From: Phycisphaerae bacterium
GTDB lineage: Bacteria > Planctomycetota > Phycisphaerae > Phycisphaerales > SM1A02
Assembly (NCBI GenBank): GCA_002862305.1
Contig: PKCS01000098.1
Location: 1-44,083, forward strand
Direction of reading: 5' to 3'
Length of the DNA: 44,083 nucleotides
Shown: positions 491 through 6,767 of the stretch, in pieces
How the letters are laid out: every line of letters starts with the position of its first letter
Position numbering within the stretch: the first letter of the stretch is position 1
Notes under the pieces: model-generated
The model's input: the letters and a program-made list of their open reading frames with translations, nothing else
What the model was told of the DNA's origin: nothing
The model's database searches: none
Translations under genes and position numbers: made by a program

Positions 491-3052
491 TCAATCGCGT
501 CTCGGATCCTTGTTCGAGTTGGTGCCCTCGGAACCGGGTCCCCCGAGTCCCAGCTGGTTCTGCAGGTTCCGCATGCGCTCCCCGATCGGGTCCTTGAAGT
601 ACTCGAGTCTTCTACGGTCGATCTCGTTGAAGTTGATGTCGTTCTCGTCGGGGTTGTCAACGACGATCGGGGTGATGAACACTACCAGTTCGCTGATGAT
701 CGTCTCGTCGGATTCATTCGAGAATACCCAGTCGAGGATCGGGATGTCCCCGAGCAGCGGGACCTTGTTCTTCCGCTTCCCTTCGGACTCCTTCCGGATG
801 CCCGAGATCACGATGGTCTGGCCGTTCTTCACCGTGATGGTGGTGTTGGTCTGGCGACGCTTGAAGGTGGGGTTGTTGCCTGCTCCCTGGATGCTGTTCT
901 TGTCGATATTCGAGAGCAGGATCTCGATCTGCATCGCGACATTCTTCTCCTTCGTGATCCGGGGTCGGACGTTCACGCCGATCCCGACCGCCCGGTAGTC
1001 GAAGGTGTCCGTGGTCTGGGTGGCGACGGTGGTGCCGGTCTGGACCGAGACGTCCTGACCGTCGAAGAAGACCGCCTCCTGGTTGTCCGAGGTGAACAGC
1101 CGCGGCGACTGGAGGATTCTGGTGTTGGTCACCTGGTCGAGGGCCTGCAGGATCACGGTCGCGTCGGTGTTGAAGGTGAAGATGCTCTGGGTGAGCGAGT
1201 TGGGGAAGACGTCCTGCTTGTCGCCCAGGAAGTCCGTGTTGATCACCACCGCATTGTCGGGGTTGTCGGGGCTGATCCCCAACTGGCCGAAGCGGAGGCC
1301 GAATTCGAACTGGTCACCCAGTTCGACCTCCGCGAGGACGGCGCTGATCATGACCTGCCGGCCCGGACGGTCGAGCTCGGTGATGATGTCGATCACCGCC
1401 TGCTGGATCTCGGGGGTCGCCAGGACCAGCAGTGAGTTCTGCGAGGCATTCGGGACCACGCGGGCCTTGCCGACCAGCGCGCTGACCTCCGCGGACTCGC
1501 CTTCGGCTCCTCGCTGGGTCTGCCAGGGGAAGCTGATGGTCGAGGTGGCGTCACCCGTCCCACCGGTGGTGTTCAGGCTGCTCGAGGTGTTGGACGCACC
1601 CCCCGCGGCATTGAAGTCGATTCCCGACAGGCCGTCATCCGGGGCGGTGATCGAGGTCTGGGCTCCGGAGCTGGCCAGCAAGGCGTTCAGGATCTCCGCC
1701 ACGCTGATCGCGCTCGCGTGCTTCAACTCGATGTTGATCGGCATGCCCACGCTGAGCGGCATGTCGATGCGTTCGATCATCTCGTTCAGCCACTCGAAGT
1801 TGCTTGGCGACTTGCTGATCACGATCAACCTGTTCGAGTCCGGGTAGGCCTCGATCCTGAAGATGTTCGCGACTGCGGCGTCCGCACCCGCCGTCGGGGC
1901 GTTGCCACGATTGTTGCCCCGGGCGTTCCCGGCGCTGGCGGTGCCACCGCTCTCGAGGAGGGAGACCAGCAGTTCCTTGACCTTGAGGGGGTCGGTGTAC
2001 TTGAGGTCGTAGATCCTGAAGATCTCGCCCTCCTGGGCGGGAGCGACGTCCCAGGCGGTGTCCAGGAGCGTCCGGATCTCGGTGATGATGTCCGGCTCCG
2101 CCCGGACCGTGATCGAGTTGGTCGGCTCCAGCACCGTCACCGTCAGCTGCTCGCTCGTGCCGACCTCCACCGGGGCCTGCTGTTGCGTGTTGCGCTGTGG
2201 GGTGTTCCTGCCCTGCGACCTCCCGGTGGTTCGGTTGACCTGGGGTGATGTGGTGCCGCTGGAGGCGAAGAGCGTCTCCACGAGTTCCGCGACCGTCGTC
2301 GCATCGGCGTACCGGAGCCGGAACGTCTCGACCTTGACCGCGACGTAGGGTTCCACGTCGAGAATCCTGATCAGCCTGGCCACGCGCTTCGCGTACCCGA
2401 TGTCGCTCTCGACGATGATCTGGTTCGAGTTCACGTCGACCGTGAGGCGTGCGTACTCGGGCTTGGAGGGGTCGAGTCGCTCGAAGATGTCCTGGGCCTT
2501 GGCCTCCATGATCTGGAAGACCTTGATCACGATGTTGCCGTCGTCGTCGAGCTCCTCGACATCCACCTCGGGACCGAGCACCACCCCGGGCTGGAGGGCG
2601 GACACGTCGTTGATCGAATCGATCATGATCATGTCCTCGGTCTCGACCACCGCGATGTCGTTGAGCTTGAACGCCTGGTAGAGGATCTCGAGGGCGGTCG
2701 ACTTCGGTACCTTCTTCTCGGACATCACGGTGATCTTGCGCGAGAGGATCGCCTGCTCCTGGACCATCACCACCTTGCCCGTCCACCTGACGATGAACTC
2801 GATGATCTCGCTGACGTCCTGCTTGTTCAGGTTCAGGTTGACCAGTTCCTCGCCGTCCACGGGGGGGGGCATGATGCCCCCCTCGAGTTCCTCCGGATCC
2901 TCGGAAGGCTCGAGCACGAGCGCGGGTTCCCGTTCACCGCCTGGTGCCGGCACGGATTCCTGCGCGAGGCCCGGGCTCGTGAGGGACCCCCACAGCAGCG
3001 CGGCGGCGGTGAGCAGGCAGGCGAGTATGGATGTCTTGGTGTGGAGGATCAA
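491..3052 (-). CDS. gspD: Type II secretion system secretin GspD-like
   Basis: This is the outer-membrane channel of a type II secretion system, 853 residues. A signal peptide (ILACLLTAAALLWGSL...GLAQ) is followed by an acidic stretch, an N0-type domain (about 70-145), and four repeats of the N1/secretin_N type (about 172-232, 238-340, 345-440 and 445-560). The secretin core then runs from about 565 to 800 and includes the motif VPLLGDIPILDWVFS and the closing VVFITPIVV. The number of periplasmic N domains is at the high end for the family. Repeats 2-4 carry Gly/Asn/Ser/Thr-rich insertions. The start is TTG, with AAGGAA upstream and the signal peptide immediately after. It sits between the GspC-like gene and a lipoprotein gene. 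Confidence 0.93.
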   Translation of the reverse strand: MILHTKTSILACLLTAAALLWGSLTSPGLAQESVPAPGGEREPALVLEPSEDPEELEGGIMPPPVDGEELVNLNLNKQDVSEIIEFIVRWTGKVVMVQEQAILSRKITVMSEKKVPKSTALEILYQAFKLNDIAVVETEDMIMIDSINDVSALQPGVVLGPEVDVEELDDDGNIVIKVFQIMEAKAQDIFERLDPSKPEYARLTVDVNSNQIIVESDIGYAKRVARLIRILDVEPYVAVKVETFRLRYADATTVAELVETLFASSGTTSPQVNRTTGRSQGRNTPQRNTQQQAPVEVGTSEQLTVTVLEPTNSITVRAEPDIITEIRTLLDTAWDVAPAQEGEIFRIYDLKYTDPLKVKELLVSLLESGGTASAGNARGNNRGNAPTAGADAAVANIFRIEAYPDSNRLIVISKSPSNFEWLNEMIERIDMPLSVGMPINIELKHASAISVAEILNALLASSGAQTSITAPDDGLSGIDFNAAGGASNTSSSLNTTGGTGDATSTISFPWQTQRGAEGESAEVSALVGKARVVPNASQNSLLVLATPEIQQAVIDIITELDRPGRQVMISAVLAEVELGDQFEFGLRFGQLGISPDNPDNAVVINTDFLGDKQDVFPNSLTQSIFTFNTDATVILQALDQVTNTRILQSPRLFTSDNQEAVFFDGQDVSVQTGTTVATQTTDTFDYRAVGIGVNVRPRITKEKNVAMQIEILLSNIDKNSIQGAGNNPTFKRRQTNTTITVKNGQTIVISGIRKESEGKRKNKVPLLGDIPILDWVFSNESDETIISELVVFITPIVVDNPDENDINFNEIDRRRLEYFKDPIGERMRNLQNQLGLGGPGSEGTNSNKDPRRD

Positions 3053-3184: not shown

Positions 3185-4069
3185 TCAGGCCTCGTTGTCT
3201 TCGCTCTTCTCCCTGAGCTTCTGCATCAATACCTTGCGTTCCGCCTCGAGTCGGTCCTTGGTCGCCTGGTCGATGCCATCGGCTCGCATGCCGCGGAAGA
3301 TGTCGCCTATCCGCTGGGTGATCTCCGACCGGGTGAGGGAGTCCAGCTCGGCCTCCGTCAGCGGTTCGGGAACCCTGTTCATGTTCGTATTTCGGCTGGA
3401 TTCGGTCCTGGCCCGTGAGGATTCCCTTGCATTGCTCGTGACCGGCCTGCTGGATCCGAGCGCCATCGATCCCTCGGAGACCAGATCCTCCCGGGTACTG
3501 TCGCTGAAGGGCTTCTCCCCGAAGAAGGCCGGCATCTCCCCCCCAAGGAGGTCGATCTCGTATTCGCCCTTCTTCCATCCGAGCTTCACCCGGAACGGTC
3601 CGTAGACCTCGAGGACCTGCACATCGTCCGCCGTCTCGCCGACGGACACCCTCCGGCCGTTCTTGAAGAAGACGTTGGTCCCGAGGATGCTCTGGATCTC
3701 GGGGCCTGCGTACTGGGCGGGAGGCGGTGGCGGAGGCGGGGGAGGCGGCGGCGGCGGCGGTGGGGGGGCGACCGTCCTCGGGGCCGGTGGGCGGGGCGGC
3801 GCCGGCCGGTTCCGGACGGGTTCCCGGGGGATGTAGAAGATCGAGCGGCCGTTGAAACGGTCCTCGGCACGGTCCATGACCGTGTTGTTGCTCAGGAGCC
3901 GGGCGACCACGTTGGCCTCTTCGGCCTCGACGGACGACTCGGTCAGGGAGCCCACCACCAGCATCATGCTCCCGATCATGAACGTCGAGGCGGTCACCAG
4001 CGCCACCACGCTTATCGCCAGGCTCGCCGGGATCTTGAGGCCGGGGATGGATCGTTCGTGAATCCTCAT
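3185..4069 (-). CDS. GspC/PilP-like inner-membrane linker protein with polyproline hinge
   Basis: The 294-residue protein has a short cytoplasmic N-terminus, one membrane segment (about 14-42), then a periplasmic region. Residues about 88-117 are almost entirely proline, with an unbroken run of 16 or so. A small beta domain follows (about 120-175, with NVFFKNGRRVSVGE and an FRVKLGWKKGEYEIDLLGG strand pair), resembling the homology-region domain of GspC or PilP that contacts the secretin. The last ~55 residues are charged and helical and align without gaps to the C-terminus of the GspL-like protein. An SD (GGAGAGGGG) lies inside the end of the upstream gene. Position between the GspM-like gene and gspD supports a GspC role; sequence similarity alone is weak. 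Confidence 0.7.
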   Translation of the reverse strand: MRIHERSIPGLKIPASLAISVVALVTASTFMIGSMMLVVGSLTESSVEAEEANVVARLLSNNTVMDRAEDRFNGRSIFYIPREPVRNRPAPPRPPAPRTVAPPPPPPPPPPPPPPPPAQYAGPEIQSILGTNVFFKNGRRVSVGETADDVQVLEVYGPFRVKLGWKKGEYEIDLLGGEMPAFFGEKPFSDSTREDLVSEGSMALGSSRPVTSNARESSRARTESSRNTNMNRVPEPLTEAELDSLTRSEITQRIGDIFRGMRADGIDQATKDRLEAERKVLMQKLREKSEDNEA

Positions 4070-4072
4070 CCG

Positions 4073-4720
4073 CTAGACCCCTCTCCGGTTGCTGCGCGTC
4101 TTGAGCACCCAGCTCTCCAGGGTGATGTCCACGTTGACCAGCCCGCGGGACTGCTCCGGTCCCGAGTCGTAGCGACTGAGTTGCAGCCTGGTGATGCTGT
4201 AGATCTCCGGGCTCGACTCGAATGCCTTGATGATCCTGGTCGCTGACGCGTGGTTGCAGTCGAACTCGAGCCGACCCACGATCTTCGCGAGCTTCTGCCC
4301 GCTGCTCCGCGGGATCTCGGGGGCCGCGCTGTTGGGGAGGTTCGCCCCGGGCGAGATCGAGATCGCGACCATCTCGGCGTCGTTTGCCTCGAGTATCTCG
4401 TTGATGACCTCGTACATCCGCTGTTCCGCCGCGAGCGTCGACAGCCTCGGATCCGGCAATCTGAGTTCACCCATCGCCTGCACCTGGTCCCGGAAAGCCG
4501 GCTTCAGCTGGGTCTGGGCACTCCGTGCCCGGTCGATCTGCAGCAGCAGGTCGTCCGCCTCGGCATTGAGGTTCTTCGCTATCGCCATGCTCTCGAGCAC
4601 GCCCAGCAGGACGATGCTCACGCCCGCCACGACCACGAGGGTGCGGGTGGTCTTGGAGAACCGGTCGAATTCCGAACGAACCCGGGTGATGGTGTTGTCA
4701 AGATTCTGGTTCAGTGGCAT
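4073..4720 (-). CDS. GspM/PilO-like inner-membrane assembly protein
   Basis: The open frame extends upstream, but the ATG at 4720 (MPLNQNLDNTITRV) is chosen because it follows the GspL-like stop by 10 nt and gives a 215-residue protein. It has one N-terminal membrane segment (about 26-46), a coiled-coil stretch (NLNAEADDLLLQIDRARSAQ) and a periplasmic alpha/beta region, the plan of PilO and GspM. The C-terminal domain includes LEFDCNHASATRIIKAFESS, typical of a ferredoxin-like fold in PilO. It ends 3 nt before the GspC-like start. In this family the protein sits beside GspL in the inner-membrane platform. Assignment rests on topology and gene order. Confidence 0.72.
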   Translation of the reverse strand: MPLNQNLDNTITRVRSEFDRFSKTTRTLVVVAGVSIVLLGVLESMAIAKNLNAEADDLLLQIDRARSAQTQLKPAFRDQVQAMGELRLPDPRLSTLAAEQRMYEVINEILEANDAEMVAISISPGANLPNSAAPEIPRSSGQKLAKIVGRLEFDCNHASATRIIKAFESSPEIYSITRLQLSRYDSGPEQSRGLVNVDITLESWVLKTRSNRRGV

Positions 4721-4730
4721 GGGTTGGTGG

Positions 4731-6767
4731 TCATCCTGAGGCGTTCCTCGTGGCTTCGAGGAGTCGCTTGAAGTCAATCCGGAGACGTTCGCTGGTCTCC
4801 TCGTCGAGGTCGTTCCGCTGGCGCGCCTTCGCGTTCCTGGAGGTCGCCTCCAGGAGCTCCGCACGGCTCATCGCCGCGATCTCGTTGTCCGTGAGCGAAT
4901 CCGGTATCGGGGCGAGGCCCGTCGAGCTCCTCGCGGCCGTCTGTTCGCTTCGCCGGGCGGGGGTGTTTCCACCCTGTCCACCCGCACCGAGTCCCGAGGA
5001 CCTGCCTGCGGCCCGGGCCGGCGCGCCTGCCGTGGCGGTTCCGGGGGTACGGGCTCGCTCCGGGCTCCGCGCGGGTTCCCCGGCGAATCCCGAGCCGGTT
5101 TCCCGTGCTGAACGCGCCGGGGCGGATGCGGCCACGTCGGCTCTCGCGGGATCCGCCTCGGCCTTCGCGCTGGCGAGCTCGGTGGCCGGGACTTCCTCCA
5201 CCGATTCCAACTGGTCGACTTCCTCGGTCTCTTCCTTCTCCTCGTCCTCGAATGCATGGGGGTAGCGGATCTCGACGTGCGGAGTCTTCGCGAAGTCCTG
5301 CACGAAGTTACGGACGTACTTGTAGGGCTCCCGCACCGTCGCGGTGATCGAGAACTGGATCAGCCCACTGTTGTCGACCGGATCGCTGGTGTAGTTGATG
5401 TCCCCGAAGATCTGGGTGGACTCCATGCGCTCCATCGCCTCACTGATCAGTTCGACGGGACTGATCCCCTGGAAGCGACCGGCCCGACCGCGCAGCACCA
5501 CTGAATCACCCTCGTTGATCATGATGGTATCCGCCTGGATGCCCAGAGGAATGCAGTTCGCGAGGTCGCCGAGCAGCTTGGTCATCGGCCAGGCCCGCCC
5601 CGCCATCTCCCTGTAGATTCCCTGTTGCTGCTCGAAGTCGGCGAGCGTCGCCTCCAGGGCCTGTCGGTCGTCGACCTTGCCCTGCACGACCGAGAGCCGT
5701 ATCCACGCGGAGAAGATCGGGATGAAGGTCGCGGCGATGAAGGCGGCCACCAGGACCATGACCATGACCTGCATCGAGGAGAAGGTCCTGGCCACGGTGG
5801 CCACCGGGCCCAGGATCTCCGCCTTGCGGGTCAGCTGCAACCTGGTCAGCGGCCTGAGGTTGCCGGCATTCGCCAGCAAGGCGCCCACTGAGAGCCCCCA
5901 GCTCTTCCACCAGTGCTCATCGCCTGCCCCGGTGGTGATGCGTTCGAGGTGGCGGCGGGCCGATTCGGGGATGAGCAGCACTTCCTCGCCCTCGGATCCG
6001 CGAATCTCCGAGTCGAGCCTGGTGTCGAGTTCGGCCCTGAGGCGTTGGATCTGTTCGGTGGATTCATGCCCGGCGACCGCGGTCTCCATGACGGTCCTCA
6101 GGATCGAGTCCTTCCAGTCACGGGTGCCTTCCATGGGCTCCCGGGTCGACCGGACCAGCAGCCCCGAGCTGGAATCGAGGACGATGGCCACCGAGTTGCT
6201 CGAATGCTCCGCGTGAATCAGCGCATCGGAACATGGCTGCATGGGCAGCATCCCGAGCAGCGCCGCGGTATCGGGTACGTAGTAGATCCCCTCCCGGGGG
6301 CTTGGTGGGACCACCGTCGAGGTCGCCGGCCACGAGACCAGCACGCCCTGTCGGGGCTGTCCTTCCCGGGCATGGATGGCCGCCATCCCGACTCGGTGGG
6401 CGGGAGCACCGCCCAGCAGGTGGGATTCCGCGCTCAGCCTCAGTTCCTGGTCCACCTGCTCCTCGGTCTCTGCGTCGTTGAGGTGGAGCACCCTCGAGAT
6501 GGTCTGGGCGGCGGGCAGCAGCACCAGAACCTGCGGATTGCCGTTGGCCTCCAGCCAGAGATCGATCTCTCCGGTGGGCCCCTCGTGGTCCGCGAGATTG
6601 TTTTCTCCGGCCCGGGCGGGATCGGATGGGGCCTGGAAGACCTTGGTGTCGAGGATCCGTACCTTGCCCTCGTGGAGTTCGCCGAACAGCACGGACCAAC
6701 CGGCCTCGGTGGACCGGAAGATCGCCGCCCGATGGGGGTGTTCGAGGTTTTCAGGGAGGGTGATCAC
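4731..6767 (-). CDS. gspL: GspL/PilN-like inner-membrane platform protein
   Basis: The 678-residue protein has a cytoplasmic actin-like/PilM-type region (about 1-320, with VLVLLPAAQTISRVLHL and AIVLDSSSGLLVRS strands), one membrane segment near 330-355, and a periplasmic PilN-like domain (about 365-500) ending in a coiled-coil and ferredoxin-like part. An acidic and then Ala/Arg/Ser/Gly-rich linker of roughly 110 residues follows, and finally a ~55-residue helical tail that matches the tail of the GspC-like protein. In T2SS, GspL recruits the GspE ATPase to the membrane. It overlaps gspK by 4 nt (ATGA). The length is well above the usual ~400 residues because of the linker and tail. Confidence 0.82.
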   Translation of the reverse strand: MITLPENLEHPHRAAIFRSTEAGWSVLFGELHEGKVRILDTKVFQAPSDPARAGENNLADHEGPTGEIDLWLEANGNPQVLVLLPAAQTISRVLHLNDAETEEQVDQELRLSAESHLLGGAPAHRVGMAAIHAREGQPRQGVLVSWPATSTVVPPSPREGIYYVPDTAALLGMLPMQPCSDALIHAEHSSNSVAIVLDSSSGLLVRSTREPMEGTRDWKDSILRTVMETAVAGHESTEQIQRLRAELDTRLDSEIRGSEGEEVLLIPESARRHLERITTGAGDEHWWKSWGLSVGALLANAGNLRPLTRLQLTRKAEILGPVATVARTFSSMQVMVMVLVAAFIAATFIPIFSAWIRLSVVQGKVDDRQALEATLADFEQQQGIYREMAGRAWPMTKLLGDLANCIPLGIQADTIMINEGDSVVLRGRAGRFQGISPVELISEAMERMESTQIFGDINYTSDPVDNSGLIQFSITATVREPYKYVRNFVQDFAKTPHVEIRYPHAFEDEEKEETEEVDQLESVEEVPATELASAKAEADPARADVAASAPARSARETGSGFAGEPARSPERARTPGTATAGAPARAAGRSSGLGAGGQGGNTPARRSEQTAARSSTGLAPIPDSLTDNEIAAMSRAELLEATSRNAKARQRNDLDEETSERLRIDFKRLLEATRNASG

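What the first reader, a model, noticed from the sequence alone, without database searches (positions are those of the whole stretch)
3188..4907. Shared ~53-residue C-terminal module on GspC-like and GspL-like proteins
The tails of the two inner-membrane proteins (gspC-like at 3188-3367, gspL-like at 4734-4907) align without gaps over about 53 residues: LTEAELDSLTRSEI / LTDNEIAAMSRAEL at the start and QATKDRLE / EETSERLR later, with about 12 identities by eye and many conservative pairs. Both are predicted periplasmic and both hang from long disordered linkers (polyPro; Ala/Arg/Ser/Gly). This looks like a duplicated docking or dimerisation domain not described for T2SS proteins.
Basis: partly seen in the sequence, partly recalled or inferred. 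Interest (0 to 1): 0.65.

Follow-up and report, generated by a model that had tools for sequence, protein, structure and literature searches.

The report
Mobile three-helix tail on secretion proteins
Two membrane proteins of a planctomycete type II secretion machine really do end in the same small three-helix domain, which no searched database names; relatives show that it belongs to one of the two (GspL), was copied onto the other once, and has repeatedly been copied from there onto unrelated exported proteins, which suggests a docking tag for the secretion machine whose partner is still unknown.

Summary
The C-termini of the GspC-like and GspL proteins align without gaps (13/55 identical; no shuffle in 20,000 as good). 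Family profiles match at 99.4% probability, E 3.6e-21. Separate AlphaFold2 models of both tails give the same three-helix mini-domain (pLDDT 91 and 90). The domain is absent from Pfam and NCBIfam.

All 54 GspL proteins examined, from four families of one planctomycete order, carry the tail, and it is more conserved than the neighbouring periplasmic domain. Only 30 of 55 GspC proteins carry it, nearly all in one subclade. So it is an ancestral GspL domain, copied once (perhaps twice) onto GspC.

It is also not confined to the T2SS. It occurs on a GspD in one lineage and on DUF1579, secretin-N-like, beta-lactamase, von Willebrand, kinase-TPR and other mostly exported proteins. In 10 of 13 non-GspC, non-DUF1579 cases the nearest of 59 GspL tails is that of the same genome; one pair shares 263 bp at 93.5% DNA identity.

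Best reading: a periplasmic docking module on a flexible tether that brings its carrier to the GspL platform. Docking itself is inferred, not shown.

The parts
4734..4907 (-). C-terminal tail module of GspL (residues 621-678), three-helix mini-domain
   Evidence: AlphaFold2 pLDDT 91.3, pTM 0.75, helices at model residues 13-18, 21-35, 42-63
3188..3373 (-). C-terminal tail module of the GspC-like protein (residues 233-294), same three-helix mini-domain
   Evidence: AlphaFold2 pLDDT 90.4, pTM 0.73, helices at 9-14, 17-31, 38-61
4908..5279 (-). Low-complexity (acidic, then Ala/Arg/Ser/Gly/Pro) linker between the periplasmic domain of GspL and its tail, about 124 residues
   Evidence: Sequence; linker 64-177 residues, median 126.5, in 50 relatives
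3374..3541 (-). Ser/Arg/Ala-rich linker between the HR-like domain and the tail of the GspC-like protein
   Evidence: Sequence
4731..6767 (-). gspL-like gene, 678 aa: cytoplasmic part, TM helix, PilN-like periplasmic domain, linker, tail
   Evidence: PilN (PF05137) hit in 7 of 10 family members, best E 7e-4, below the curated cut-off for the window protein; position between gspK-like and gspM-like genes
5289..5681 (-). PilN/ferredoxin-like periplasmic domain of GspL (approximate limits)
3185..4069 (-). gspC-like gene, 294 aa: TM helix, polyproline run, small beta domain, linker, tail
   Evidence: assignment by layout and position between gspM-like and gspD; T2SSC (PF11356) not detected in this genome
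3542..3709 (-). HR-like (GspC/PilP-like) beta domain of the GspC-like protein (residues 121-176)
   Evidence: Conserved block in relatives; not detected by Pfam or PDB sequence profiles
4073..4723 (-). gspM-like gene between gspL and gspC, no tail
   Evidence: NCBIfam T2SS_GspM_XpsM E 2.7e-4, below its cut-off
491..3052 (-). gspD secretin gene, no tail in this genome
   Evidence: Pfam Secretin E 3.8e-44, Secretin_N, GspD N0

Best explanation
The tail is an undescribed, roughly 52-residue, three-helix domain that is the ancestral C-terminus of GspL in four families of one planctomycete order, carried in the periplasm on a long flexible linker. It was copied onto GspC in an ancestor of the subclade that holds the window (perhaps once more in another genus), onto GspD in one other lineage, and repeatedly and recently onto other, mostly exported proteins of single genomes, in at least one case visibly by direct DNA copying of the 3' end of gspL. 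SHOWN by computation: homology, common predicted fold, conservation, distribution, within-genome copying. INFERRED: that it is a protein-protein docking module. On GspL, and on GspC where other systems have a PDZ or coiled-coil domain, it would reach through the periplasm and bind either another tail (helix-bundle pairing) or one shared partner in the secretion machine. A carrier that gains the tail would thereby be brought to, or made to compete for, the T2SS platform.
For: Profile match 99.4%, E 3.6e-21. Same helices in both models. 54 of 54 GspL with tail. Tail more conserved than the adjoining periplasmic domain in 45 of 50 relatives (median 38% against 31% identity to the window) although the linker is not conserved, which argues for a function on GspL. 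GspC tails form essentially one subclade on the GspL tree: 2 changes against 17.8 in shuffles. Most other carriers have a signal peptide or TM helix before the tail: 11 of the 16 ORFs screened by a simple hydropathy scan, and a 12th (L070) by eye. 10 of 13 non-GspC, non-DUF1579 copies are closest, among 59 GspL tails, to that of their own genome; 263 bp at 93.5% DNA identity joins the 3' ends of gspL and an STN/secretin-N-like gene in one genome. Carriers include GspD itself and proteins with secretin N-type domains. In known systems the GspC C-terminal domain is PDZ or coiled coil (PMC3169554) and OutC takes part in substrate recruitment (PMC9239104; PMC7949064).
Against: No interaction, ligand or phenotype was tested; complexes could not be predicted. 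Some carriers (Ser/Thr kinase with TPR, vWA protein with a TM helix) are not plausible T2SS cargo, so plain secretion tagging cannot explain them all. Similarity to the genome's own GspL may reflect recent copying only. GspC works without the tail in many relatives. GspC tails are not especially like the GspL tail of the same genome (median rank 25 of 55), so no matched pairing is visible there.
Confidence: 0.45

Rival explanations
1. The tail binds a general envelope component (peptidoglycan, outer membrane or surface layer) and acts as a generic periplasmic anchor, as SPOR or LysM domains do; GspL and GspC use it to tie the machine to the wall.
For: It is C-terminal, after a low-complexity linker, on membrane and exported proteins of unrelated function, which fits anchoring better than secretion tagging for the kinase and vWA carriers. 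GspB/OutB has a C-terminal extension that fixes a T2SS to peptidoglycan (PMC9239104).
Against: Very few copies per genome (1-5 in the genomes, often on GspL alone), whereas a general anchor would be expected on many proteins; no match to any known binding domain in Pfam; 10 of 13 copies resemble the genome's own GspL, pointing to the T2SS as source.
Confidence: 0.2
2. The tail is an oligomerisation module: it pairs with itself only to help GspL (and GspC) form the inner-membrane ring, and other carriers use it simply as a dimerisation domain.
For: Helical-hairpin shape typical of small bundle-forming domains; two tandem copies in the DUF1579 proteins and in L068, which could pair within one chain; GspL, GspM and GspC homologues self-associate in other systems (PMC11981180).
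Against: Both tails are confidently predicted as folded monomers; no sign of C-to-L matching within genomes; not tested directly.
Confidence: 0.22
3. The copies beyond GspL are neutral products of segmental duplication: a 3' end with its own stop codon that is readily copied to other gene ends and tolerated.
For: The shared DNA in G011 covers linker, tail, stop codon and about 29 bases past the coding part, like a simple segmental duplication; scattered, lineage-specific carriers.
Against: GspC tails and the tandem tails of DUF1579 proteins are old and still recognisable across genera; the carriers that can be classified are nearly all exported or membrane proteins.
Confidence: 0.1

Closest known systems
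C-terminal (2P) domain of GspC: PDZ or coiled-coil domain (PMC3169554; PMC11981180)
   Same: Same place in GspC: after TM helix, Pro-rich linker, HR-like domain and a second linker; periplasmic. Likely a similar role in contacting partners or substrates.
   Different: Three-helix fold, no PDZ match in Pfam; homologous to the C-terminus of GspL, which is not described for any PDZ or coiled-coil GspC.
GspL periplasmic domain (PilN-like, ferredoxin-like fold)
   Same: Window GspL has the TM helix and a PilN-like domain.
   Different: Known GspL ends at the ferredoxin-like domain (own knowledge; consistent with PMC11981180); here a 64-177 residue linker and an extra folded domain follow.
Ribosomal protein uL29
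   Same: Fold: VIA-align Z up to 8.1, rmsd 1.0-2.2 over 52-57 residues; nearly all of the top 50 rows are uL29/eL35 chains.
   Different: Foldseek E about 1 or worse; profile-profile probability 2% or less and not clearly above column-shuffled controls; periplasmic, not ribosomal. Probably the same simple arrangement, not shown kinship.
GlyGly-CTERM / rhombosortase tag of some T2SS substrates (PMC3237569, PMC6219818)
   Same: A C-terminal module shared by otherwise unrelated exported proteins and linked to the T2SS.
   Different: GlyGly-CTERM is a processed motif with a hydrophobic segment; this is a folded soluble domain that is also part of the machine itself.

Membership tests
T2SS GspL | TM helix followed by a PilN/ferredoxin-like periplasmic domain | tested here: inconclusive
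   PilN hits 7 of 10 family members (best E 7e-4), window member E 0.069, below the curated cut-off; weak PDB match to PilN, E 0.038
T2SS GspL | Gene position between gspK and gspM in a T2SS operon | tested here: met
   ORF order; GspM-like model hit E 2.7e-4, below cut-off; secretin gene downstream E 3.8e-44
T2SS GspL | Cytoplasmic actin-like domain that binds GspE | not tested
   N-terminal 330 residues not modelled here
T2SS GspC | HR beta domain recognised by the T2SSC model (PF11356) | tested here: inconclusive
   No match in the window's genome; only sub-threshold matches in relatives; no Pfam or PDB profile hit for the domain. HR domains share only 10-17% identity (PMC9239104), so sequence models are weak judges.
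T2SS GspC | Layout: N-terminal TM helix, Pro-rich linker, small beta domain, second linker, C-terminal domain | tested here: met
   Sequence of P0001, compared with PMC3169554; the beta nature of the domain is read from sequence only
GspC C-terminal PDZ domain | PDZ domain | tested here: not met
   No Pfam match in P0001; predicted all-helical
Ribosomal protein uL29 | Sequence similarity to the uL29 family | tested here: not met
   hhalign probability 0.6-2.0%; 3, 22 and 19 of 150 column-shuffled controls score as high. A normal uL29 gene exists elsewhere in the genome.
Any named Pfam or NCBIfam family, for the tail | Score above the curated cut-off | tested here: not met
   only chance-level hits, all below cut-off

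The most novel reading that the evidence does not exclude
The T2SS of this order carries its own recruitment tag: the folded GspL tail is a recognition module that, copied onto an exported or envelope protein, delivers that protein to the secretion platform. The machine would thus hand out its own docking domain, and new clients would arise by copying the gspL 3' end.
Probability: 0.2. Interest if true: 0.85.

Novelty: new variant of a known kind. Interest (0 to 1): 0.62.

Why it matters
How T2SS substrates are recognised is still unsettled (PMC7949064). A folded domain shared by GspL, GspC, once by GspD, and by several exported proteins gives a concrete thing to test: if the tails bind each other or one common partner, recruitment could be read from sequence in this order. 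It also defines an undescribed domain family with a clear history of copying from a secretion machine to other proteins.

Tried and rejected
(1) Chance or composition: rejected by shuffles and profile tests. (2) Gene conversion or matched co-evolution of the two tails within a genome: GspC tails are not closest to their own GspL (median rank 25 of 55, rank 1 once in 30). (3) Monophyly of all GspC tails on the tail tree: neither shown nor rejected (6 changes; AU p 0.24; 56 columns are too few). (4) Kinship with uL29: fold match only, no sequence support (one search was a first try with many rows on the wrong strand). (5) Hits of the PDB profile search (a designed helical protein, calmodulin, NblA, MafG): short helix-cap matches of an all-helical profile, taken as chance. 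(6) Weak matches outside the order (seryl-tRNA synthetase, SecA, a secretin N region, one exported protein; E 4e-4 to 1e-3): judged chance. (7) The hit in L099 (weak, frame doubtful) and L074 (internal, not near own GspL): left out. (9) L036 'no GspC tail' is a contig end, L102 a scaffold gap.
Full report
OBSERVATION. The window holds a T2SS operon on the minus strand: GspE-, F-, G-, H-, I-, J-, K-, L-, M-, C- and D-like genes from about 13613 down to 491 (GspE to GspK named from sequence and order only). GspD is clear (Pfam Secretin), GspM is hit below its cut-off, GspL has a PilN-like domain recognised in 7 of 10 family members but below cut-off in the window protein. The GspC-like gene is assigned by layout and place; the T2SSC model does not ring in this genome. 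The last about 55 residues of GspL and GspC align without gaps, 13 identities, E 5e-5 for the single pair, 0 of 20,000 shuffles as high, and each is the other's best among 134 ORF C-termini of the window. In the whole genome the GspL tail as query finds itself and the GspC tail only (E 0.019).

HOMOLOGY IS FIRM. Relatives were taken from 41 genomes and read as loci. Models from two GspL tails alone hit GspC tails and the reverse. Profile against profile: probability 99.4, E 3.6e-21, all 59 columns in register. AlphaFold2 models with only four sequences each give pLDDT 91.3 and 90.4 and the same helix order: a 6-residue helix, a 15-residue helix, a 22-24 residue helix. The two predictions share the same four rows in different order, so they are separate targets but not independent alignments. 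Consensus, roughly: LTxEQIxxMSxxEAxxALxxxAxARxxxxLDxETxxRLRxEFxxLLxRxR. No Pfam or NCBIfam family reaches its cut-off.

DISTRIBUTION. 54 of 54 GspL bodies read end in the tail; 30 of 55 GspC do, one of the rest (L036) being cut by the contig end. The later loci were partly chosen because they had two matches, so these fractions are not a census; in the first, unselected set the GspC tail was seen in 10 of about 30 operons and the GspL tail in all. In the window's family 162 of 181 genomes (96 of 104 good ones) have a match. In the order it is found in families f1-f4; none was found in the f5 and f6 genomes listed, and in those of them that were searched no GspL of this kind was found either. 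Elsewhere in the phylum and class only chance-level hits appear. On a tree of GspL bodies the GspC tail needs two changes (shuffled mean 17.8): one subclade of 29 rows with the window, and L097. Hence GspL is most simply the older carrier and GspC the later one. In 45 of 50 relatives the tail is closer to the window's than the PilN-like domain is (median 38% against 31%; a rough measure), while the linker varies from 64 to 177 residues: a conserved, freely tethered domain.

BEYOND THE T2SS. The GspL-tail profile found further copies. In the window's own genome a signal-peptide protein with a DUF1579 domain (PF07617, E 1.3e-27) has two tandem tails; similar proteins in G002, G003, G010 and G068 do too. 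Single or double tails end, or follow, proteins with secretin-N/STN-like regions (L069, L075, L076), a class C beta-lactamase-like domain (L070), vWA/YfbK domains (L072, L073), a Ser/Thr kinase with TM helix and TPRs (L077), TM stubs (L071, L111), a thioredoxin-like protein (L113), WD40 repeats (L109), and in G133 the GspD secretin itself, residues 820-869 of 877. A hydropathy scan sees a hydrophobic segment (signal peptide or TM helix) before the tail in 11 of the 16 ORFs scanned; L070 has a signal peptide by eye; L068, L113 and L109 (cut at a contig start) are unclear, and L074 is a doubtful member.

COPYING FROM GSPL. 10 of 13 copies outside GspC and the DUF1579 proteins have the GspL tail of their own genome as the nearest of 59. 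A binomial figure of 5e-16 printed there treats copies as independent, which those of G054 and G011 are not; take the count, not the figure. One of the ten (L072) is a tie with another genome. In G011 the 3' end of gspL and that of the STN/secretin-N-like gene share 263 bp at 93.5% identity, reaching about 29 bases past the coding part; 93.5% rather than 100% speaks against a chimeric assembly. GspC tails, in contrast, are old: own GspL ranks a median 25th of 55.

HOW IT LIKELY WORKS. Shown: a conserved domain with a confident predicted fold, flexibly tethered on the periplasmic side of GspL, copied to GspC and to other proteins. Inferred: docking. In other T2SS the corresponding end of GspC is a PDZ or coiled-coil domain (PMC3169554), OutC takes part in substrate recruitment (PMC9239104; PMC7949064), and GspC, L and M form one complex (PMC11981180). 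The simplest reading is that the tail contacts a partner at the platform, another tail or a shared protein, and that carriers acquire that contact with the tail. The kinase and vWA carriers fit docking or anchoring better than secretion. I give docking 0.45, pure oligomerisation 0.22, envelope anchoring 0.20, neutral copying 0.10.

FOLD. VIA-align of the GspL-tail model ranks uL29/eL35 chains almost exclusively at the top, Z 7.0-8.1; Foldseek E-values are not significant. The tool warns that Z below about 13 for helical bundles may be only a common arrangement. The uL29 profile made from 30 sequences of this order (two of them read on the wrong strand) gives probability 2% or less, with shuffled controls as high in 3, 22 and 19 of 150. 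So the resemblance is recorded, kinship is not claimed.

LITERATURE. No paper found in the library describes such a tail; subscription papers are mostly absent there. The organism is a relative of Planctomycetes bacterium TMED75, whose GspL is 62% identical in the best segment.

Noticed in passing
L063:6885-8267 (-), own genome, contig C2:106884-108266 (outside the window): Exported DUF1579 protein with two tandem copies of the tail; similar proteins with two copies in G002, G003, G010, G068. Function unknown.
   Followed up: partly
L048:8576-8838 and L069:5768-6030 (genome G011): 263 bp shared at 93.5% identity between the 3' end of gspL and the 3' end of an STN/secretin-N-like gene next to an obg-type GTPase gene: a recent DNA-level transfer of a protein tail.
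   Followed up: yes
L098:1265-3895 (-), genome G133: A GspD secretin that carries the tail at its own C-terminus (residues 820-869 of 877).
   Followed up: partly
Genome G054 (L068, L076, L077, L108): At least four tail copies besides GspL, on a two-tail protein, an STN-like protein and a kinase-TPR protein, all closest to that genome's GspL.
   Followed up: partly
window:4734-4925 (-), GspL tail model: The small domain superposes on ribosomal protein uL29 over its whole length although no sequence kinship is detectable.
   Followed up: partly
L109:3-2456 (+), genome G291: WD40-repeat protein whose tail is closer to the GspL tail of another species of the genus (G131) than to its own, hinting at transfer between species.
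   Followed up: no
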